Below the pieces are notes generated by a model that was given only the letters and a program-made list of their open reading frames with translations, searched no databases and was not told where the DNA came from. A stretch of 49,927 bases of DNA, taken from the NCBI GenBank assembly GCA_018058095.1, contig JAGPCO010000051.1:1-49927 (forward strand). Direction: 5' to 3'. The stretch is from Kofleriaceae bacterium (GTDB taxonomy: Bacteria > Myxococcota_A > Polyangia > Haliangiales > Haliangiaceae). Position 1 is the first letter of the stretch. Each line of letters begins with the position of its first letter. Below are positions 3,177-13,509 of this stretch, piece by piece. Both the position numbers and the translations under genes were made by a program.

Positions 3177-3308
3177 GCCGGCATGCGGCGGAAATACCCC
3201 CTGGCGTCCCGCGGCGCCGGGCCGGACCTGTCAGGGCGCCATGGTAGCCACGGACCTGGAACGAGGGCCACGCAGAGGTCCTCGCAACCCGAAGAAGTCG
3301 AGGAAGTC

Positions 3309-3803
3309 ATGGCCGCCGGCGTCAACAAAGTCATTCTCGTGGGCCATCTCGGCGCGGATCCCGACATGCGCTACACCCCGAGCGGGCAGGGCGTGTGTGA
3401 GCTGCGCGTCGCCACCAGCGAGAGCTGGAACGACAAGAACGGGCAGCGCCAGGAGCGCACCGAGTGGCACCGCGTGGTGGTGTGGGGCAAGCGGGCCGAG
3501 GTGTGCGCCAAGTACCTGGCCAAGGGCCGCCAGGTCTACGTCGAGGGCCGCATCCAGACCCGGTCGTACGACGACAAGGAAGGCGTCAAGCGCTACATGA
3601 CCGAGGTCATCGCCAACGACGTCCAGTTCCTCGGCAGCGGCAACCGCGACGGCGCGGGTGCTGGCGGCGGTGGTGGTGGTGCGGGTGGTGGTGGTCGCGG
3701 TCGCGACGACGCCGGCGGCCCGCCGCCCGACGACCTCGGCTACGGTGGTGGCGGCAGTGGTGGTGGTGCCGGCCCTGGCCCCGACGACGACATCCCGTTC
3801 TGA
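3309..3803 (+). CDS. ssb: Single-stranded DNA-binding protein
   Basis: The 164-residue SSB binds single-stranded DNA during replication, recombination and repair. The OB-fold occupies residues 1 to about 107, beginning [20 protein letters not shown], with [20 protein letters not shown] and [14 protein letters not shown] Gly/Asp-rich linker follows, and the protein ends in DDDIPF, the canonical acidic tip that recruits repair and replication proteins. The ATG at 3309 is preceded by purine-rich GAGGAAG. The Gly-rich linker is coded by GGTGGTGGT runs. It stands alone on the plus strand. Confidence 0.97.
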
Positions 3804-3835
3804 GCTGCGTCGGAGACCTCTTGGTTCTGTACCGG

Positions 3836-3883
3836 GGCGGCTGCCTCTGCGGGCGAGGTTCGCCGTGCGTCCTGGCTGCCGCC
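3836..3883 (+). terminator. Candidate terminator: nested hairpin downstream of ssb
   Basis: Arms GGCGGCTGCC (3836-3845) and GGCTGCCGCC (3874-3883) pair with one mismatch. Between them sits a second, perfect hairpin GGCGA-GGT-TCGCC (3852-3864). It lies 33 bp after the ssb stop, between convergent genes. There is no T tract, so intrinsic termination is not certain. Confidence 0.35.
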
Positions 3884-3991
3884 GTTCGCGGGCACGAAGT
3901 GCTACCCGCGGGATCGCGACACGGGCGCTCGAACCGAGCCGTAGGCTGGAGGGCCACGGACGGCCCGACGAGTCACGACAGGCCGAACCGG

Positions 3992-4381
3992 CTACGGCGT
4001 GCAGGCGTTGACCGCCGACGGACGACAGAGGCCCATGCCGTTGCAGCGCGGGGGCTCGGGCGCGCCCGGTTGCGCCGGGCACGGGTTGGCGCCATCGCAG
4101 GCCTGGGTGCACACGGTGAACCCGGCGGTGCCGAAGTCGCGGCAGTTGCCCGACAGGCAGTCCGACGGCAGCGTACACGGCTCGTAGGCGGCGCCGGTGC
4201 ACACGTTGCCGCCGGCGCCGTCGGGTGTTCCGGCCGCGCCGTCGGGGCTGCCGGCCGCGCCGTCGGGCGTGCCGCCGGTGGCGGCGTCGGCGGACGGATC
4301 CGGGTCGGACCCACAGCCGGCGGAGCCGAGCACCAGGAGCACGAGAATCGAGTACAGCGCAGCGCCCGTCTTCGACATCAT
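3992..4381 (-). CDS. Cys-rich secreted lipoprotein
   Basis: The 129-residue protein has a lipoprotein signal peptide (hydrophobic ILVLLVLGSAG followed by Cys), then a short repeat of PDGAAG units, then a Cys-rich domain with spacings such as CTLPSDCLSGNC and CNGMGLC. This disulfide-rich style is common in outer-surface lipoproteins of myxobacteria. The start chosen is the ATG at 4381, because TAGGAT (4389-4394) ends seven bases upstream of it, as for other leaderless genes here. An in-frame ATG at 4390 would fall inside that box. Function is unknown. It diverges from the TonB receptor. Confidence 0.7.
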   Translation of the reverse strand: MMSKTGAALYSILVLLVLGSAGCGSDPDPSADAATGGTPDGAAGSPDGAAGTPDGAGGNVCTGAAYEPCTLPSDCLSGNCRDFGTAGFTVCTQACDGANPCPAQPGAPEPPRCNGMGLCRPSAVNACTP

Positions 4382-4388
4382 GGAGACC

Positions 4389-4490
4389 ATCCTACCAAGG
4401 TCCTCGCGACGCCCGCGCGCGCGATCGTCGACGGTGCGCACCTGTTACGACGCTGTAACCGGAGCAGGCCGGTGGACCTCGGCATATGCT
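4389..4490. promoter_or_regulatory. Divergent leaderless promoters with an inverted repeat
   Basis: A minus-strand -10 box TAGGAT (4389-4394) serves the Cys-rich lipoprotein. A plus-strand box TATGCT (4485-4490) ends six bases before the receptor ATG at 4497. Between them is the inverted repeat GTTAC-N6-GTAAC (4444-4459), a possible operator. Neither gene has a Shine-Dalgarno sequence. I found no clear -35 for the receptor. Confidence 0.4.
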
Positions 4491-4496
4491 GCGCGC

Positions 4497-6515
4497 ATGA
4501 ACCTCGGCGCGGTCCTTGCTGAGCCGATCGCCGCCATGACCTCCCCCGGGCGCAAGCGCGCGATCGCGCTCGCCACGGTGCTGCTGGGCGCGGCCGGGCC
4601 GGCGACCGCAGCCCCGGCCGGCGGGGTGGCCAGCCCCACGTCGTCACCGGCGGTCGACGACGGCGCGGCGGCGCCGGGCGAGCCGGCGCTGACCGACGCC
4701 GAGCTGCTGGCGCAGAGCGAGGCCGAGGCCGAGGCCGAGGTGATCGAGGTGTGGGAGGAGCGACCGGAGAAGCCGTTCGATCGCGACACCACCCGCCGCC
4801 TCACCGGCGCGGAGCTGGCGGCGCGCGGCGCGACCGACCTCGGCTCGGCGCTCGCGCTCCTGCCCGACGTGTCGGTGCGCGACGTCGGCCGCGGCGGCTT
4901 CAACGTCGACATCCGCGGCGCGCGCAAGGGTGCGGTCCGCGTCCTCATCGACGGCGTGTCGGTCAGCGACCCGTATTACGGCACGTTCGACGTCTCGACC
5001 ATCCCGGTCACCGACATCGCCGAGATCCGGGTCTCGACCTCACCCAGCTCGCCCATCGACGGGCCAGGTGGACCGGGCGGCGTGATCGAGGTCCACACCC
5101 ACGACGCGATCGGCCCGAGCTTCACCATCGCCCGCCTGGTCGGCACCACCCAGCGCGGCGCCACCGCGTCGGCGACCGGCCGGGTCGCGCTGACCGACCG
5201 GCTGGCGGTGCGCCTGTCGACCACCGCCGGCGTCGGCAACGAGGAGTTCTCCACCCCGCGCGGCTCGGTCGACGAGGACCGGCGCGCGACCTCGGGCGCG
5301 CTGCGCCTCGAGTACCGGCACGGCCAGCGCCGCGTCGTGGTCGACGGCTTCGCCGACGACCGCCGCTACCTGGCGCCGCCGTCCGACGAGCTGGCCACCG
5401 CCCTGTTCCTGCTCGTCGGCAACGAGAGCACCGGCCGCGTCGGCGTTGCCTTCGACGACGCGCTCGGCGCCAGCCAGCGCCTGCAGCTGAAGGCGGCCAG
5501 CTGGCTGCACGCCACCAGCAAGCAGAGCTTCAACTTCCGCGACCCGGCGCTGACCGAGCTGGCCAACAGCGAGGATCTGTTCGCCCTGCGCGCTGGCGGC
5601 CAGGCCCTGCTGACCCGACCGATCGGCCGCGACGCGCGCTGGGTCACCTCGATCACCGTCGATCACGAGCGGGCGCGGTCGGAGAACCAGCGGGCCGAGG
5701 TGACCCGGGCCGAGGTCACCACGGTCGAGGTCGCCGCCGGCGGCCAGTACCAGCGCGGCCGGCTCCGCCTCGACGGCGCGGCCGGCCTGGCGGTGCCGCT
5801 CGGGATCGAGGCCGGGCCGTGGCCGGAGGCCAAGCTGAGCGCGAAGCTCGACGCCACCGCCTGGGCCAGCGTCGAGGCCATCGCCGCCCGCAAGGGCCGG
5901 GTGCCGAGCCTGCGCGAGCGCTTCTTCGACGGCAACGGCGGCAACACCGCCCTCGATCCCGAGCAGGCCAGCCACGGCGAGCTGCGCCTGGTGGTGCGGC
6001 CGCGCGCCGGCGTCGAGCTGACCGCGGCGCCGTACCTGCGCCTGACCACCGGCACGCTCAAGGTCGGGCCGCCGCCCGACAACCTGCTGGTCAACCTCGG
6101 CCGCCTGCGCGTGGCCGGCGTCGATCTGCTGGCCCGGGCCGAGCTGACGACCTGGGCCGAGCTCGGCGGCGGCTATACGCTGGCCGACGCCTACTCGGCC
6201 GACGTGTGCGGCGACGCCGCCAGCTGCTCGCCGATCGAGCGCTTCCCGCGCCACCGCGTCGACGGCTGGGGCCGGCTGCGCCACCGCCGTGGCAGCCTGC
6301 TGGTGCGCGGGCGCTTCGCCGGCCGCGCGGTCGACCAGACCGTGGTCACGCCGCGCTACGTGTTGTGGGAGGCGACCGCCACCGCGACGCTCCGCCCCGG
6401 CTGGCTGGTCGTGCTGCGCGCCGACGACCTGCTCGACGCCCGACCGGAGACCCGCGCCGGGTACCACCTGCCCGGCCGCACCGTGACCGCCCTGGTGCAA
6501 GGCACCTGGGACTGA
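4497..6515 (+). CDS. TonB-dependent outer-membrane receptor (BtuB-like size)
   Basis: The 672-residue protein has a signal peptide (residues 1 to about 38), an acidic Ala/Glu stretch ending in a TonB-box-like EVIEVWEERPEKP (81-93), then a plug domain at about 95-205 with DLGSALALLPDVSVRD, VRVLIDGVSVSDPYYG and GPGGVIEVHTHDA. The rest is a 22-strand-type barrel. It imports a scarce ligand, perhaps a metal complex or vitamin, across the outer membrane using TonB energy; the ligand is not readable. The start is the ATG six bases after TATGCT. A long in-frame extension upstream overlaps the divergent lipoprotein gene and lacks a signal sequence. Residues about 579-609 are duplicated at 7824-7914. 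Confidence 0.88.
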   Translation: MNLGAVLAEPIAAMTSPGRKRAIALATVLLGAAGPATAAPAGGVASPTSSPAVDDGAAAPGEPALTDAELLAQSEAEAEAEVIEVWEERPEKPFDRDTTRRLTGAELAARGATDLGSALALLPDVSVRDVGRGGFNVDIRGARKGAVRVLIDGVSVSDPYYGTFDVSTIPVTDIAEIRVSTSPSSPIDGPGGPGGVIEVHTHDAIGPSFTIARLVGTTQRGATASATGRVALTDRLAVRLSTTAGVGNEEFSTPRGSVDEDRRATSGALRLEYRHGQRRVVVDGFADDRRYLAPPSDELATALFLLVGNESTGRVGVAFDDALGASQRLQLKAASWLHATSKQSFNFRDPALTELANSEDLFALRAGGQALLTRPIGRDARWVTSITVDHERARSENQRAEVTRAEVTTVEVAAGGQYQRGRLRLDGAAGLAVPLGIEAGPWPEAKLSAKLDATAWASVEAIAARKGRVPSLRERFFDGNGGNTALDPEQASHGELRLVVRPRAGVELTAAPYLRLTTGTLKVGPPPDNLLVNLGRLRVAGVDLLARAELTTWAELGGGYTLADAYSADVCGDAASCSPIERFPRHRVDGWGRLRHRRGSLLVRGRFAGRAVDQTVVTPRYVLWEATATATLRPGWLVVLRADDLLDARPETRAGYHLPGRTVTALVQGTWD

Positions 6516-6699
6516 CCGACACGGTGCCACGAGGTGCCGGTGGACGAGTGGCGCTGCGGGTGAACTGGCGCGCGGTGCGAGCGGATGTGGCGTGCCCTGC
6601 AAGTGCGACCGCCGACGTGCGACGCCGGCGCATCCGTCGGCCAGGACATGCACCACACCCGCACCTACGGTCGCCGCAGGGCCGTGTGACGGTGGCGGC
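6516..6699 (+). other. Intergenic region between receptor and lipoprotein
   Basis: This 184-bp stretch has no hairpin typical of a terminator. TACGGT at about 6665 may be a -10 box for the downstream lipoprotein, with a short leader that contains GGTGG. Confidence 0.25.
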
Positions 6700-7794
6700 A
6701 TGCAGGTCCCACGCTGGCCCATCGGGTTGAGTCTCTTGCTGGCAGCGTGCGCGAGTGGTGGCATCGGCAAGCGCGCGGACCGCGCCGCGGTGGCGAACCC
6801 CGGTGAGCTAGGCCGCGCGCGCGCCATCGCTGCGCGCGCACACCTCGGCCCGAGCGGACCCGCGATCGCGCGCGTGTTGTCGGAGGACACAGGCCGCGCT
6901 GGCGGCTCGTGCGTGGCGTTCACCAGCCCCGTCGTCGAGGTCGGGACGACGACGGTCGGCGTCGTCGAGGTGGAAGATGGCGCCGCGCTGGTGCGGACCG
7001 TGCCGGTGCGTCGGCTGGCGTGGATAGTCACCGGCGACGAGACCTACCTGTCCCCCGGGCGCGGGTTGCCGGCCCCGGGCGCGGGCGAGCCGGCGGTGTT
7101 CCTCCGGCGCGGCGCGATGGTCGAGGTGATCCGCCGCGATCGCGACTGGATTCTGGTGGAGCTCGCCGAGGGGTCCGAGACCGCGCGCGGCTGGATCCCC
7201 GTCGCGAGCGCCGCGCAGGTCGGCCCGGGGCGCGACGACGCCGCGGCGACTACGATGGAGGCGGAGCAAGGAGTGCGCGTGTGGCCGCTGGCCGGGCAAC
7301 TCCGGGCTTCGGCCGCGGCCGACGCGCCGGCGCTGCTGACGACGCACGCGGCCGGGCCGTTCGCGCTGGTGTCGCGCACGGAGGCGGCTGCGCTGGCCGT
7401 GTACCAGAGCGCCACGGTACGCGCCCTCGGCTTCATCACCTTCGCCGAAGCGGACGACCTCGCGCCGCCCGGGCGTGACCTGCACCGATGCGTGAACGAG
7501 CCACCACCACGTCGAAACCTCCCGGTAGTCCACGTGTTTCACGGCGGCGAGCGCGCCGAGGTCGACGTTCCGGCCGGGGTGTGCCTTCGGTCCGAGCTCG
7601 ACGGCACCGTGGTCGGCATCACCTTGGCGCCTGCTCGCCGCACCCTGACCCGTCGAGCGGGCAGCGGCTGGGCCACCGCCTGGTTCGCAGGCCGCAACTT
7701 TCCGCCCGTCTCGCTGCAGATGCCGACGCGGCCTGGGGCCGGCCCCGTCCAGATCGTCGCTGACTGCAGCGCCAGCTTGGCCGGCCGCGACTAG
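6700..7794 (+). CDS. Lipoprotein with SH3-like segment
   Basis: The 364-residue protein starts MQVPRWPIGLSLLLAAC, a clear lipobox, so it is probably lipid-anchored. The segment VFLRRGAMVEVIRRDRDWI followed by GWIPVASA (about residues 135-170) resembles a bacterial SH3-like fold, which often binds cell wall or peptide. The rest has no recognised motif. The upstream frame is open to 6592, but the signal peptide fixes the start at 6700, with GGTGG a few bases before it. It sits between the TonB receptor and the duplicated receptor fragment. Function unknown. Confidence 0.65.
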   Translation: MQVPRWPIGLSLLLAACASGGIGKRADRAAVANPGELGRARAIAARAHLGPSGPAIARVLSEDTGRAGGSCVAFTSPVVEVGTTTVGVVEVEDGAALVRTVPVRRLAWIVTGDETYLSPGRGLPAPGAGEPAVFLRRGAMVEVIRRDRDWILVELAEGSETARGWIPVASAAQVGPGRDDAAATTMEAEQGVRVWPLAGQLRASAAADAPALLTTHAAGPFALVSRTEAAALAVYQSATVRALGFITFAEADDLAPPGRDLHRCVNEPPPRRNLPVVHVFHGGERAEVDVPAGVCLRSELDGTVVGITLAPARRTLTRRAGSGWATAWFAGRNFPPVSLQMPTRPGAGPVQIVADCSASLAGRD

Positions 7795-9246: not shown

Positions 9247-10941
9247 TCAGCGGCCGGCGGTGCCGGTCGACCACACCGGCGCGCCCGCGGCGTAGATGAC
9301 GACGTTGCCGTCGTTCTGCAACTCGAGCGCCGCGCCCGGGTGACCGCCGCTGCCGCTCGACCACACCACGGCGCCGTCGGCCGCGCTCACCACCAGGTTG
9401 CCGTCGTCCTGCATCGTCACCCGGCCGGCCGCGCCGCCGGTGCCGCTGGCCCAGATCGGCGCGCCCTGCTGGTACAGCACGAGATTTCCGTCGCCCTGGT
9501 AGGTGAACACGAAGCGGCCGTCGCTCGAGGTCAGGCTGCCGCCGGCCGGCAGCCAGGCCCCGGCCGCCAGGCGCGAGGTCACCGGCGGCGCCTCGCCGGG
9601 GATGCGCTCGATCGGCACCTGCGCGGTGACCGGCGCCTCGCCGCGGATCATCTTGGTCGCCGCCCCGGCCAGGCGCAGGTAGAAGTCTGACGACACCCGC
9701 GTACCGTCGGCGTCGAGGGTGAGGAAGTACTGGTCGTTCGGCGTCTGGCTGCGATCGACCGCGGCCTTGGCCAGCGCGGTGCCCTCGTCGTACTCGTCGA
9801 ACATCGCGAGGTACGCGCCGGTGCCGAGGCGGGCGGTGTGATAGGCCTGGCTCCAGAAGAAGTCGCCGGCGCGGCGCGGGATGCCGTTCTGCGGCGGCGC
9901 GTTCCAGTTCGACCAGGCAAAGCCGGGCCAGATCACCCGCTGGTAGGCCTGGCCGCGCTGGTCGGTCAGGGCCACGTCGCCCGGCACCAGGTCGGAGAAG
10001 TGGCCGTCGAGGTCGCCCCGGCTGGCGAAGGTGCCGACCGACCACGGCTGCACCAGGTCGAGCGCGGCGAACGCCTCGTCGAAGCCGGGCTTGGCCCCGC
10101 CCGGCGAGCGCCAGCTGTACGGCACGCCGCCGGCGACGTACACGCCGCGGGCCTGGAACCAGCGGATGAGCTCGAGCGCCTGCGCGCCGGTGCCGGGCCG
10201 GTCGCCCGAGCCGATGCCCCACACGTTGACCACCGGCTTGCCGTCCTGGTGCGCGTACTGCGGCGAGCCGGCGTGGCCCTCGCCGCCCTCGACCAGCGCC
10301 AGCCAGTCGCGCTTGATGTCCTCGGCCCAGGTCGCCTCGCCGGCGCCGCTGATGTCGTACATCACGTAGTAGATGCGGCCGTGGCGCTCGGCGGCGGCGC
10401 GGATGCGGCGCAGGATCTCGTAGCTGCGCGTCGGATTGCCCAGGCCGACCACGAAGCGCTGCACGCCGATGCCGTCGATGCCGTACTCGGCCATCCAGCG
10501 CAGGTGGGTGTCGATGACGCTGGCGCCGGCGGCGTTGTACAGGCGGGCGCGCTGGCCGTTGCCGAGGTTGCCGAGGTTGGTGTCGCACAGGTCGCGCGGG
10601 TCGTACTCGCTGACGTCGGGGTACAGCTCGAACGAGATGCGGCCCGGCTCGGGGTTGTTGCCGTAGCTCCAGTGCGTCCAGTTGGTGCCCAGGTCCGAGG
10701 TCGGGCAGCCGAACCAGGCCTGGTAGCCGGCGGTGACCTTGTCGACGAAGGTGCTGGCGTCGGCCCGGCTGCTGATCGCCGTCGGGTCGGGCTCGTCACC
10801 CTCGACCTCGGCGTCGGCGCCGATGCAGCCGGCGCTGGTCGCCAGGGCGGCGGCCAGGGCCAGGGCCGAGGCCAGGGTGGCCCGGCCGGAGGGGGTGAGG
10901 ACCGGGGCGGCGGCGGCGGACGACGTGGGGTTGGTGCGCAT
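9247..10941 (-). CDS. GH99-like glycoside hydrolase with bulb-type lectin domain
   Basis: The 564-residue exported protein has a lipobox-like LATSAGC. Its catalytic part begins YQAWFGCPTSDLGTNWTHW and contains DTHLRWMAEYGIDGIGVQRF, a pattern of GH71/GH99-type (beta/alpha)8 enzymes, and AMFDEYDEGTALAK, whose two Glu residues resemble the acid motif of endo-acting GH99 enzymes. The last 115 residues are a B-lectin with three repeats (YQGDGNLVLYQ, MQDDGNLVVSA, LQNDGNVVIYA), expected to bind mannose-type sugars. A role in breaking down mannan-like glycans is inferred. The start is the ATG at 10941 with GGGAGG close upstream; a GTG at 10971 is possible. Confidence 0.8.
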   Translation of the reverse strand: MRTNPTSSAAAAPVLTPSGRATLASALALAAALATSAGCIGADAEVEGDEPDPTAISSRADASTFVDKVTAGYQAWFGCPTSDLGTNWTHWSYGNNPEPGRISFELYPDVSEYDPRDLCDTNLGNLGNGQRARLYNAAGASVIDTHLRWMAEYGIDGIGVQRFVVGLGNPTRSYEILRRIRAAAERHGRIYYVMYDISGAGEATWAEDIKRDWLALVEGGEGHAGSPQYAHQDGKPVVNVWGIGSGDRPGTGAQALELIRWFQARGVYVAGGVPYSWRSPGGAKPGFDEAFAALDLVQPWSVGTFASRGDLDGHFSDLVPGDVALTDQRGQAYQRVIWPGFAWSNWNAPPQNGIPRRAGDFFWSQAYHTARLGTGAYLAMFDEYDEGTALAKAAVDRSQTPNDQYFLTLDADGTRVSSDFYLRLAGAATKMIRGEAPVTAQVPIERIPGEAPPVTSRLAAGAWLPAGGSLTSSDGRFVFTYQGDGNLVLYQQGAPIWASGTGGAAGRVTMQDDGNLVVSAADGAVVWSSGSGGHPGAALELQNDGNVVIYAAGAPVWSTGTAGR

Positions 10942-11091
10942 GCCTCCCGGGACGAGCAGGGACCGGGCCACACCCGGCGGGGCGCGGAAGGTGACGGGCC
11001 CGGGCCGGCCGTTGCTTCGGCGCGCCAGCCGCTGTCGTCCTGGCGCTGGCGGCCGGGTCGACCGGCTAGCGCAGGCGCCGGCAGCCGGCGG

Positions 11092-13509
11092 TCAGGCCGA
11101 CGCCGCGCCGCGCCGGTACAGCGTCACGTAGTTCCAGGCCCGGGCCAGCATGGCGTCGGAGTGCTCGTTGCTGTCACCACGGGCCTCGGCCGCGGTGAGC
11201 TCGCTGGCGGCCTCGACCATCCAGTCGTCGTCGCGGCCGTCGCCGTCGTGGTCGGTGTGGGTCGGTACGTTGCGGTGCTTGCTGCCGGCGCGGCTCTTGC
11301 CCGGGTCGGCGTAGGCATCGCCGGCCTTGCGCCGATCGTAGCCGGCGCGGATGCGGCCGTACGGGTCGTCGATGATCATGCCGCCGCTGACCACCTGCTG
11401 CGGCACCACCAGGTGTGTGCCCGACTTGCCCGCGCCCTTGTGGAACACGCTGAGGATGGCCGAACCGCCGGCCTCGAGCGCGGCGTGGACCTCGGCCCGC
11501 ACCGTCGCCCACGACACCTTGCCGTCGTTGCGCAGGGTCTGCACCGTCGGCCGATCGGCCGCGTCGGTCTCGATCTTGCCGAGCAGCTTGGTCGCCGCCG
11601 GCGTGATCGAGGTGCGGTCGATGCCCAGCATCGACAGCAGGAAGTCGACCAGGTCCTCGAGCTGGGCGTTGGCCGAGAAGGCCGCCGCCATCTCCTTGCG
11701 CTCGGCCCGGCTGGTGTCGTGACCGCGCAGGCGCTGGTAGCCCTTGCCGGCGGCCTGCTCGTGATCGAGGTACCGCAGCACCTCGGCGCCGAACTGACCC
11801 TTGGGCAGCGCGACGTCGGACAGGTCGACCCCGTCGGTCGCCTGACCCTGGGCTCGCAGCCAGCGCCGCTTGACCTCGCGGTCGATCGCGGCCAGGAGGT
11901 CGGCCCGGCTGTATCCCAGCCGCTCGAGGACCATGGCCATGCTCGTCACGTTGCAGGTCGCCTCGGGCGCGGCCAGGTTGTCGGACTGGGTCCGGTACTG
12001 GCTGGCGCCGAGGCGGCTGTGCCAGTCCTCGCCGCCGTCGAGGTGCTCGGCGTACAGCGCCAGCTCGCGGGTGGCGCCGATCAGCTCCGGCGGCACCCAC
12101 GCGCCGGTGGCGTCCTCGGCCAGCGGCTGACGCGCCAGCTCGAACGCGTCGGTCTCGCCGGGGCGGCGCAGCGCGCCGACGAAGCGCTCGATCTCGCGCA
12201 GCAGCTCCTGGCTGCGGGCGCGCCGGGCCTCGCCGTCGAGGTCGCGCAGGCGGGCCAGCTCGAGCCGGACCCAGTCGGCGTACTCGACCAGCGTGCCGTC
12301 GGTCCAGTCGTCGTCGCGCGCCGTGCCCTTGGCCGCCGATGCCTTGGCCTGCGTGCTCGTCGAGGTCGGCGACGCCCCGGCGTGTTCGGCCGCGGCCGGG
12401 GCGACGTCGGCCGGCCCGCCGGCGCCACCGGGCGGCGTGCGCCCGGCCCGTGCCTCGCGCTGCAGCTCGGTCAGCGACGGCATGTGCTCGGCCATCGGCC
12501 CGCCGCCGTAGCCATACGCCTCGCCCTCGGTCTCCAGCTCGACCTGGCGCAGGTACGCCAGGCGGCGCTGGAACCGGTCCTCGGGCACGTGTTTCCACGC
12601 CGCCCGATCGGCCATGGCGTCGGTCAGGCGCAGCAGGTCGTCGCGCGCGGCCGCGCCCTGCACCCGCTCGCGCGCGGACCCGGTGTAGTCGCCGCGGTAG
12701 CGCAGGTCGATCAGCGTGTCGGTGATGGCCGGGTTGATCTCGTCGAGGTCAGCCCGGCCGTACGCCTCGACCACGCCCGGCTTGCCCGAGATGCGGTCGA
12801 CGTCGCGCGCCATCTCCTGGTAGGTGATCGTGAACAGCGCCTCCTGCTGCGTCGGCGTGATCTCCGGCAGCGAGGCGTGGTGCGCCGCCAGCCAGGCCTT
12901 GGCCTTGGCCCCGCGCAGGCCGGCGGCGGCGGCGTAGGCCCGGGCCGTCTCGGTTGACAGCCCGGCCGCGGTCATCGCCGTGATGATCTGCGCCGCGCTG
13001 TGCTGGCCGAGGTCATAGCCGCGACCGATCGTGACCCCCGACGGCCCGGGCGGCACGTGAGCGACGCGGGTGTGGAACTTGCCGCCCTCTCGCCCTTCGG
13101 CGTCGAACGTGAGCTGCCCGGCCTCGACCTGGAACGCTGGCCCGGCGGTGCCGCTGCCGTACCGATCGACGTAGGGGCCGGTGCTGCCCTCGATCGCCGG
13201 CGGAAGCGCGGCAGCCTCGGCGGCCGGCTCGGTCGCGCGCTGCTGGTCCTGGACCTGGCGCAGCACCGCGAACGCGACCATGTTGCCGGCGCCGGCGTGG
13301 ACCGCGCCCATCATGGCCCCGGCCTCGGCCGGGTGGGCCAGGATCAGCGCGGCGATGGCGTCGGGCTGGGCAGCCCCGGTGGCCAGCAGCGCCTGGATCT
13401 GCGCGACGCCACCACCGACCGTGGGCCCAGCGCTGGCCGACGTGGGCTCGGCAGCGCGGGCGCCGCCATCAGCCAGTCTGCCGTGAGCACCTGCGCCAAC
13501 CTCAGCCAT
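11092..13509 (-). CDS. Putative two-domain peptidoglycan hydrolase effector (pesticin-like muramidase + C39-like peptidase)
   Basis: This 805-residue protein has no signal peptide. Residues about 36-87 form a helical hairpin with IAALILAHPAEAGAMM and GNMVAFAVLRQV. Residues about 135-320 resemble the pesticin/T4-lysozyme fold: EGGKFHTRVAHVP, then GVTIGRGYDLGQH, giving a candidate triad Glu141, Thr160, Asp166. A flexible Ala/Thr/Ser linker (about 355-400) and a helical segment lead to a C39-like cysteine peptidase: SQYRTQSDN, Cys519 in TCNVTSMAMVL, His699 in SGTHLVV, Asp714/715 in IIDDPYG. Both heads could cut peptidoglycan, one the glycan and one peptides. Without a Sec signal it would need a dedicated secretion route. 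Function is inferred from motifs. Confidence 0.75.
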   Translation of the reverse strand: MAEVGAGAHGRLADGGARAAEPTSASAGPTVGGGVAQIQALLATGAAQPDAIAALILAHPAEAGAMMGAVHAGAGNMVAFAVLRQVQDQQRATEPAAEAAALPPAIEGSTGPYVDRYGSGTAGPAFQVEAGQLTFDAEGREGGKFHTRVAHVPPGPSGVTIGRGYDLGQHSAAQIITAMTAAGLSTETARAYAAAAGLRGAKAKAWLAAHHASLPEITPTQQEALFTITYQEMARDVDRISGKPGVVEAYGRADLDEINPAITDTLIDLRYRGDYTGSARERVQGAAARDDLLRLTDAMADRAAWKHVPEDRFQRRLAYLRQVELETEGEAYGYGGGPMAEHMPSLTELQREARAGRTPPGGAGGPADVAPAAAEHAGASPTSTSTQAKASAAKGTARDDDWTDGTLVEYADWVRLELARLRDLDGEARRARSQELLREIERFVGALRRPGETDAFELARQPLAEDATGAWVPPELIGATRELALYAEHLDGGEDWHSRLGASQYRTQSDNLAAPEATCNVTSMAMVLERLGYSRADLLAAIDREVKRRWLRAQGQATDGVDLSDVALPKGQFGAEVLRYLDHEQAAGKGYQRLRGHDTSRAERKEMAAAFSANAQLEDLVDFLLSMLGIDRTSITPAATKLLGKIETDAADRPTVQTLRNDGKVSWATVRAEVHAALEAGGSAILSVFHKGAGKSGTHLVVPQQVVSGGMIIDDPYGRIRAGYDRRKAGDAYADPGKSRAGSKHRNVPTHTDHDGDGRDDDWMVEAASELTAAEARGDSNEHSDAMLARAWNYVTLYRRGAASA

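What the first reader, a model, noticed from the sequence alone, without database searches (positions are those of the whole stretch)
11092..13509. Two-headed peptidoglycan hydrolase without signal peptide: candidate injected effector
A pesticin/T4-lysozyme-like muramidase (Glu141, Thr160, Asp166, with the Thr-Asp spacing of six as in pesticin) is fused to a C39-like cysteine peptidase (Cys519, His699, Asp714/715). There is no Sec signal. The N-terminal helical stretch resembles, from memory, segments found in proteins linked to contractile injection systems in Haliangium-type bacteria. A predator with a bifunctional wall-cutting effector would be new. No injection-system genes lie in this window.
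Basis: partly seen in the sequence, partly recalled or inferred. Interest (0 to 1): 0.75.

Follow-up and report, generated by a model that had tools for sequence, protein, structure and literature searches.

The report
Candidate two-headed wall-cutting effector protein
A myxobacterium-like genome encodes one protein that appears to join two different cell-wall-cutting enzymes behind a small helical tag, without an ordinary export signal, and it may be ammunition for a phage-tail-like syringe that the same genome encodes elsewhere.

Summary
The 805-aa gene is real. Residues 118-330 form a pesticin-type muramidase head: profile and fold searches return pesticin first. Residues 395-805 form a papain/C39-like peptidase head (AlphaFold pLDDT 88; Q508, C519, H699, D715 conserved; C519 is the only cysteine). 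No Sec/Tat signal is visible and no upstream start exists. Correction: the catalytic Glu is more likely E138 (29 of 33 heads) than E141 (13 of 33).

The N-terminal helical stretch is a recurring module: 43 matches in 16 of 35 genomes of the order. It precedes effector-like domains (CHAP, Tle1-like, M91, PG-binding, M15-like) and, in three ORFs, adjoins eCIS_core. The genome has a contractile injection system (eCIS) on other contigs and no T6SS sheath gene was found. Elsewhere each head alone is fused to eCIS_core.

Delivery by the eCIS is plausible but unproven. The gene fails the usual tests for an eCIS toxin: no neighbouring operon, no DUF4157. That the C39 head cuts peptidoglycan is inferred. 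Two-headed wall effectors (TseP) and pesticin in eCIS loci are in print. New here, as far as searched: this head combination, the C39 family's eCIS link, and the tag.

The parts
11092..13509 (-). 805-aa CDS: N-terminal helical module + pesticin-type muramidase head + linker + papain/C39-like peptidase head; no visible Sec/Tat signal
13234..13422 (-). N-terminal helical module, residues about 30-92
   Evidence: profile A1: 43 matches in 16 of 35 order genomes, 0 in reversed translations of the fetched loci; helices 33-43, 49-58, 60-74, 76-93 at block pLDDT 80-90
12520..13158 (-). pesticin-type muramidase head, residues about 118-330
   Evidence: closest relative found for this head is in G390, 61% identity over residues 109-352
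13096..13098 (-). E138, most likely catalytic Glu
   Evidence: Glu at this motif position in 29 of 33 heads; invariant
13087..13089 (-).
   Evidence: Glu at this motif position in 13 of 33 heads; aligned with pesticin E178 in one HMM alignment
13030..13032 (-). T160, predicted catalytic Thr
   Evidence: invariant in the alignments
13012..13014 (-). D166, predicted catalytic Asp
   Evidence: invariant in the alignments
12328..12477 (-). Gly/Ala/Thr/Ser-rich linker, residues 345-394
   Evidence: sequence
11095..12327 (-). papain/C39-like peptidase module, residues 395-805 (helical segment of about 90 aa, then the catalytic domain)
   Evidence: AlphaFold pLDDT 88, pTM 0.90; VIA Z about 10 to C39, PeiR and phytochelatin synthase folds; 16 relatives
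11986..11988 (-). Q508, presumed oxyanion-hole Gln
   Evidence: invariant
11953..11955 (-). C519, presumed nucleophile, the only Cys in the protein
   Evidence: invariant; first residue of a helix in the model; single Cys
11413..11415 (-). H699, presumed catalytic His
   Evidence: invariant; in a strand of the model
11365..11367 (-). D715, presumed third member of the triad
   Evidence: invariant; just after a strand of the model

Best explanation
The gene encodes an antibacterial effector that damages peptidoglycan in two ways. The pesticin-type head cuts the glycan strand (muramidase; E138/T160/D166). The papain/C39-like head (Q508/C519/H699/D715) probably cuts the stem peptide or cross-bridge. 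With no export signal, the protein stays in the producer's cytoplasm until a delivery machine carries it. The helical N-terminal module (residues about 30-92), shared with many other effector-like proteins of the same order, is probably its sorting or loading tag. The most likely machine is the extracellular contractile injection system encoded elsewhere in the genome. Shown by computation: the two folds (the first from a low-confidence model plus profile search), conserved catalytic residues, no visible signal peptide, recurrence of the module, presence of an eCIS, no T6SS sheath gene found. Inferred: enzymatic activity, peptidoglycan as the C39 head's substrate, the role of the module, and delivery by the eCIS.
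For: Folds and residues. Module: 43 matches, five of them the profile's seeds, in 16 of 35 order genomes. Of 29 module proteins scanned (this one and 28 of the other 42), 5 have PG_binding_1, 4 PG_binding_3, 2 eCIS_core, 2 SH3_3, and 1 each SH3_4, CHAP, Tle1-like phospholipase effector, M91 effector peptidase, M15-like, C39-like and pesticin (the last two are this protein); M15-like, C39-like and pesticin are below Pfam's cut-off. Module and eCIS_core share one ORF in 3 of 43 matches. System: Pvc16, two sheaths, two gp19 tubes, CIS_tube, GPD hub and gpV baseplate on contig C68; AAA+ ATPase and a 218-aa eCIS_core protein on C177. No VipB in the own genome and in 0 of the 16 module-bearing order genomes. 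Heads elsewhere: eCIS_core + C39 head in at least 2 of 16 loci (L126, L130; Pfam run on 5 of the 16, the rest read by eye) and eCIS_core + pesticin head in L022. Pesticin head in or beside T6SS gene clusters in two plasmid regions. Pesticin head fused to another apparent wall peptidase: weak VanY/M15 matches in L159, L165, L166; papain-like motif by eye in L163. Two genomes (G294, G378) encode both heads as separate genes.
Against: No sheath or eCIS_core gene lies on the window's contig, while 88% of the known eCIS toxins in one study lie within ten genes of the operon (PMC11297309, passages). No immunity gene was recognised among the eight neighbouring proteins scanned. Of 19 distinct eCIS_core ORFs read, only the one already known carries the module. 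Module presence is not significantly linked to sheath presence (14 of 16, 13 of them over the family's cut-off, against 12 of 19; Fisher p = 0.10 on 14/16). The first 50 residues are not very hydrophilic (mean Kyte-Doolittle +0.13). The C39 model fits papain-like interbacterial toxins about as well as wall enzymes, and one such toxin, Cpe1, cleaves GyrB/ParE rather than wall (PMC12136450, abstract). The pesticin-head model is low-confidence. The pairing of C68 and C177 as one system is assumed.
Confidence: 0.45

Rival explanations
1. The C39-like head is not a wall enzyme. It is a papain-like protease toxin that cleaves a cytoplasmic protein of the target, as Cpe1 does, so the two heads hit different compartments.
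For: VIA-align gives Z 9.6 (2.2 A over 125 residues) to the papain-like toxin of a toxin/immunity pair (9l5u) and 9.3 to a C. rodentium CdiA-CT (8ssm). Cpe1 cleaves GyrB/ParE (PMC12136450, abstract). In the 16 C39-head loci no pesticin motif was seen by eye.
Against: The model also matches the pseudomurein endoisopeptidase PeiR (Z 10.5), within about 1 Z of those rows, so roughly tied. Other pesticin heads carry apparent wall peptidases or wall-binding domains (VanY/M15-like, SH3_3, LysM, PG_binding_1, several below cut-off). The two heads share one polypeptide.
Confidence: 0.25
2. It is a two-headed wall hydrolase, but it leaves the cell by another route: cell lysis as a bacteriocin, a contact-dependent killing apparatus, or an unknown exporter that reads the helical module.
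For: No link in gene order to the eCIS. Pesticin-type muramidases also occur in plasmid-borne genes followed by LprI-type genes, in or beside T6SS clusters, and in a protein with a weak RHS match. The module is not significantly tied to sheath presence.
Against: The same heads are found, singly, on eCIS_core proteins. The module shares an ORF with eCIS_core in three cases. No VipB was found in any of the 16 module-bearing genomes of the order.
Confidence: 0.25
3. It acts on the producer itself: a cytoplasmic wall hydrolase used in programmed lysis or development, possibly fired inside the cell as proposed for the Streptomyces contractile system.
For: No immunity gene was recognised among the neighbours scanned. 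A contractile injection system is required for developmentally regulated cell death in S. coelicolor (PMC10020575, title and start of abstract in the search listing).
Against: The head pair was seen in one protein only of the genomes scanned (3-4 candidates scored per genome), unlike a housekeeping lysis gene. Related heads sit beside T6SS genes or LprI-type genes.
Confidence: 0.1

Closest known systems
TseP, T6SS dual amidase-lysozyme effector (PMC11893102; passages read)
   Same: Two different peptidoglycan hydrolase heads in one effector, which also exist separately in other species
   Different: Delivered by a T6SS, interacts with VgrG2; N-terminal Zn amidase plus C-terminal lysozyme; has an immunity protein. 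Here: no T6SS sheath gene found, pesticin-type muramidase first, papain/C39-like head second, no recognised immunity gene
Pesticin and pesticin-like VgrG3cp (PDB 4AQN/4EPF; PMC9927483, passages)
   Same: Muramidase fold and the Glu...Thr-x5-Asp catalytic arrangement
   Different: Pesticin is a bacteriocin with its own receptor-binding part (recalled); VgrG3cp is a T6SS spike fusion; no C39 head or such N-terminal module is described for them in what I read
eCIS-associated toxins: EAT10 and the pesticin domain in a Pseudoalteromonas luteoviolacea eCIS locus (PMC8213781, passages); 68 predicted EATs with a peptidoglycan-binding domain (PMC11297309, passages)
   Same: Wall-directed payloads associated with contractile injection systems
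   Different: EATs are mostly encoded near the eCIS operon or with DUF4157; this gene is not, and carries a different N-terminal module
Cpe1 and CDI papain-like cysteine protease toxins (PMC12136450, abstract; 9l5u, probably the Cpe1 pair by inference, and 8ssm)
   Same: Papain-like toxin fold
   Different: Chains of 138-143 residues, so without the helical segment and large insertion; Cpe1's targets are GyrB/ParE; associated with CDI and T6SS and with an immunity partner

Membership tests
Pesticin family (PF16754) | Pesticin/T4-lysozyme-like fold | tested here: met
   Foldseek: top 11 rows all pesticin, probability 1.00; VIA Z 9.2-9.6; but a low-confidence model
Pesticin family (PF16754) | Catalytic Glu, Thr and Asp with Thr-Asp spacing of six | tested here: met
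   T160 and D166 invariant in 13 and 12 rows; Glu at the E138 position in 29 of 33 heads. Activity not tested
Pesticin family (PF16754) | Pfam curated score cut-off | tested here: not met
   17.5 against 25.8 bits, so called pesticin-type rather than a Pfam member; relatives L016, L013, L019 and L159 pass the cut-off
Peptidase C39-like (PF13529) | Papain-like fold with Gln, Cys, His and Asp | tested here: met
   pLDDT 88 model, VIA Z about 10 to C39-type peptidases; Q508/C519/H699/D715 invariant
Peptidase C39-like (PF13529) | Pfam curated score cut-off | tested here: not met
   20.6 against 24 bits, so called C39-like by fold only; relatives L131 (29.1) and L127 (24.3) pass
eCIS-associated toxin (EAT) | Gene within about ten genes of an eCIS operon | tested here: not met
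   Sheath and eCIS_core matches of the genome are on C68 and C177 only; the window is all of contig C7
eCIS-associated toxin (EAT) | DUF4157/eCIS_core in the protein or next to it | tested here: not met
   None in the protein or on C7. Homologues of each head elsewhere have it
eCIS-associated toxin (EAT) | N-terminal eCIS signal (very hydrophilic first 50 residues) | tested here: inconclusive
   Mean Kyte-Doolittle of residues 1-50 is +0.13, which speaks against it; the published classifier was not run
eCIS-associated toxin (EAT) | Found in or delivered by the particle | not testable with these tools
   Needs particle purification
T6SS effector | T6SS in the same genome | tested here: not met
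   No VipB (PF05943) match in G000, 97% complete, 227 contigs; other T6SS genes not searched
Sec/Tat-exported autolysin | N-terminal Sec or Tat signal | tested here: not met
   No hydrophobic stretch in the first 35 residues by reading, no early RR, no upstream start; no predictor was run

The most novel reading that the evidence does not exclude
The helical N-terminal module is an unrecognised sorting tag in an order of Myxococcota. It directs a scattered set of effectors (muramidases, peptidases, phospholipase, M91 peptidase, beta-repeat proteins) into an extracellular contractile injection system, replacing the usual operon linkage and DUF4157. This protein is its two-headed wall-cutting payload, and its C39-like head belongs to a family of eCIS payloads shared with Bacteroidota.
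Probability: 0.3. Interest if true: 0.75.

Novelty: new variant of a known kind. Interest (0 to 1): 0.5.

Why it matters
Published payload finding for eCIS relies heavily on gene neighbourhood and DUF4157 (PMC11297309, passages). If the helical module is a loading tag, it would reveal scattered payloads in genomes like this one, and a module-swap experiment would test it directly. The protein also shows nature joining a glycan-cutting and a probable peptide-cutting wall enzyme in a genome without a detected T6SS, and a C39-like family that occurs on eCIS_core proteins in two phyla.

Tried and rejected
T6SS delivery was considered and set aside: no VipB in the genome. The assembly is 97% complete in 227 contigs, so a missed locus is possible.

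Phage origin was considered. There was no match to the whole protein among 50,697 phage records. The C39 profile found no viral relative. The pesticin profile found 15 viral loci, seven with the head at the end of a protein of over 1000 aa that looks like a portal (named by eye). The head type is shared with phages; the two-headed protein was not found there.

The expectation that eCIS_core proteins generally carry the module was tested and failed. Of 28 loci given to the script, my pattern recovered an eCIS_core ORF in 21 (19 distinct); only the one already known had the module.

Gene-order link to eCIS was tested with eleven proteins of the own eCIS clusters (one of them the unnamed 1384-aa protein) against 31 fetched loci. 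Found: an AAA ATPase match in the three Persicobacter loci L008, L011 and L131, eCIS_core in L126 (the C39 ORF itself) and in L130 (a separate place downstream), and one baseplate match in L061. No sheath match.

A second protein with both heads arranged as here was not seen in 240 class and 282 phylum genomes. Those searches scored only 3-4 candidates per genome, so absence is weak evidence. L163 (G285) joins a pesticin head, LysM and a papain-like motif, the last by eye only and cut by the end of the fetched stretch.

Single-protein pattern scans of genome contigs and viral contigs confirmed no relative. NCBIfam gave no match. Foldseek E-values for the C39 head are above 0.1, so that fold call rests on VIA Z values and residue conservation. 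M23-like motifs in L012, L013, L016 and L019 were seen by eye; Pfam did not report them in L013, L016 and L019 (L012 not run), so they are not used.

The 33 heads were chosen by the GVTxGxGYD motif, so they say nothing about T160/D166; four near-duplicate viral loci were left out (L138, L142, L144, L146) and other near-duplicates kept.

Literature: no paper in the library holds 'contractile injection' + 'C39' + 'effector' + 'peptidoglycan', or 'Haliangium' + 'contractile injection' + 'predat'; subscription papers are mostly missing from that library.
Full report
WHAT IS THERE. The gene at 11092-13509 (-) codes for 805 residues with gene-like codon composition. The frame opens four codons before the ATG, right after a TAG, so no longer start exists. 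By reading, the first 35 residues hold no hydrophobic stretch; the most hydrophobic 17 residues of the protein (41-57, mean 1.49) lie inside the helical module; the first RR is at residue 315. The window is a whole contig (C7) of a 7.57-Mb, 97%-complete genome. A closer name was not established.

MURAMIDASE HEAD. Pfam's Pesticin match is below cut-off. A 13-row profile retrieves pesticin structures. The model, poor overall (pLDDT 59), gives only pesticin in its 11 best Foldseek rows and Z 9.2-9.6 by VIA, clearly above T4 lysozymes. In 33 heads collected by the SGVTIGxGYD motif, the Glu at the E138 position is kept in 29 and that at E141 in 13. E138-T160 spacing is 22, close to pesticin's 23. 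So E138 is the better candidate, although one HMM alignment favours E141.

C39 HEAD. Residues 395-805 form a helical segment of about 90 residues and a papain-like domain (pLDDT 88, pTM 0.90). VIA gives Z about 10 to phytochelatin synthase, C39 peptidases (PCAT1, ComA, 3erv), the pseudomurein endoisopeptidase PeiR and, at Z 9.6 and 9.3, papain-like interbacterial toxins; rows within 1 Z are tied. Q508, C519, H699 and D715 are invariant in 10-row and 17-row alignments, and C519 is the only cysteine of the protein. Relatives (16 loci) lie in Myxococcota and Bacteroidota: Persicobacter, Lewinella, Sporocytophaga, Salinivirgaceae. At least two of the 16, L126 and L130, carry an N-terminal eCIS_core domain in the same frame (E 3e-22 and 3e-27, which ran 5 of the 16; the others were read by eye). 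The L126 protein is the same as that of L158, from a genome of the window's phylum.

HEADS APART. The pesticin head occurs behind eCIS_core in G158 (L022); right after a tss cluster and next to an LprI-family gene in Thioclava; in a T6SS island of Pseudoalteromonas; before LprI/DUF1311 genes on E. coli and Enterobacter plasmids; and at the end of a protein with a weak RHS match. In other Myxococcota it is followed by PG_binding_1 and a weak VanY match (L159), SH3_3 and a weak M15 match (L165, L166), or LysM and a papain-like motif seen by eye (L163). Genomes G294 and G378 encode the two heads as separate genes. The head pair in the window therefore looks like one outcome of shuffling of wall enzymes. 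I take this as the main, indirect reason to think that the second head also cuts the wall.

N-TERMINAL MODULE. Residues about 30-92 match a 454-aa protein of the same genome and proteins of relatives. A five-row profile finds 43 matches (five of them the seeds) in 16 of 35 genomes of the order. Reversed translations of the fetched loci give none below E = 1, against 41 forward; the forward count is biased because the profile fetched many of those loci. Among 29 module proteins scanned (this one and 28 others; 13 matches had no fetched locus and one gave no ORF), Pfam reports PG_binding_1 (5), PG_binding_3 (4), eCIS_core (2), SH3_3 (2) and one each of SH3_4, CHAP, Tle1-like phospholipase, M91 effector peptidase, M15-like, C39-like and pesticin, the last two being this protein, plus two weak matches without an evident link (Metal_resist, Cu_amine_oxidN2). 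Seven others look like beta-repeat proteins by eye. In three of 43 matches the module shares an ORF with eCIS_core (L087 and L088 by Pfam, G003:C771 by strand, frame and coordinates). Against this, 18 other distinct eCIS_core ORFs that I read lack it, and module presence follows sheath presence only loosely (14 of 16 against 12 of 19, p = 0.10; one of the 14, G010, is just under the family's cut-off; the two module genomes without a sheath match are 59% and 75% complete).

DELIVERY. The genome holds an eCIS: Pvc16, two sheaths, two gp19-type tubes, CIS_tube, GPD hub and gpV baseplate on C68, and an AAA+ ATPase and a 218-aa eCIS_core protein on C177; that both contigs belong to one system is assumed. 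No VipB was found in it, nor in any of the 16 module genomes. The window gene itself lies on another contig without sheath or eCIS_core matches. By published criteria (operon proximity, DUF4157; PMC11297309 and PMC8213781, passages read) it would not be called an eCIS toxin. So eCIS delivery is the most economical idea, not a result.

COMPARISON. Two-headed wall effectors exist in the T6SS (TseP; passages read), pesticin-like T6SS effectors exist (VgrG3cp; passages read), and a pesticin domain and a toxin predicted to hydrolyse peptidoglycan and far more toxic in the periplasm (EAT10) are reported with eCIS loci of Pseudoalteromonas luteoviolacea. The papain-like toxin Cpe1 cleaves GyrB/ParE (abstract), which keeps the intracellular-protease rival open for the second head. 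What I found no print for, within, is the C39-like family's eCIS link; the helical module was not searched for by name, as I know none for it.

VERDICT. A real, well-formed two-enzyme protein, most likely an effector; a new variant of a known kind. The open and testable part is the module.

Noticed in passing
window 9247-10971 (-): Downstream neighbour, 120 bp away on the same strand: probable lipoprotein (by eye) with a weak GH99-like match (E 0.013) and a C-terminal B-lectin part resembling putidacin-type lectin-like bacteriocins (NF033557 E 3e-21, 75.9 bits against a cut-off of 275).
   Followed up: partly
window 9838-12957 (+): A 1039-codon open frame runs antisense over part of the effector gene and part of the lectin gene; my composition-based gene call did not choose it, so it is probably a high-GC shadow frame.
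   Followed up: partly
L099 (contig C68 of the own genome) 3273-7427: 1384-aa protein inside the eCIS cluster, between a tube gene and the CIS_tube gene, without any Pfam match at E 0.01; possibly a tape-measure or cage protein.
   Followed up: partly
G019 (same family): 70 eCIS_core domain matches in one genome, scattered over many contigs; several of their N-termini share a short stretch of the form GKxxxT[SG]RL before the core domain.
   Followed up: no
L008, 9508-23963 (Persicobacter psychrovividus plasmid pPP2): Three tandem units, each a C39-head gene followed by an overlapping 413-to-427-aa gene (the one scanned has no Pfam match) and divergent from an AAA ATPase gene weakly similar to the AAA+ protein of contig C177.
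   Followed up: partly
L119 7013-8670 and L120 7032-8695: C39-head genes of two related MAGs are followed by the same two genes, a probable lipoprotein (350-352 aa) and a 202-aa membrane protein (both by eye): possible immunity candidates.
   Followed up: no
L138, L139, L140, L144, L145, L146, L147 (viral contigs): Pesticin-type lysozyme head at the C-terminus of a protein of over 1000 aa that looks like a phage portal protein (by eye).
   Followed up: no
N-termini of L152, L155, L128/L157: A short GNAAAQ motif near the N-terminus of separate pesticin-head and C39-head proteins resembles the end of the helical module (LGNAxVQ).
   Followed up: no
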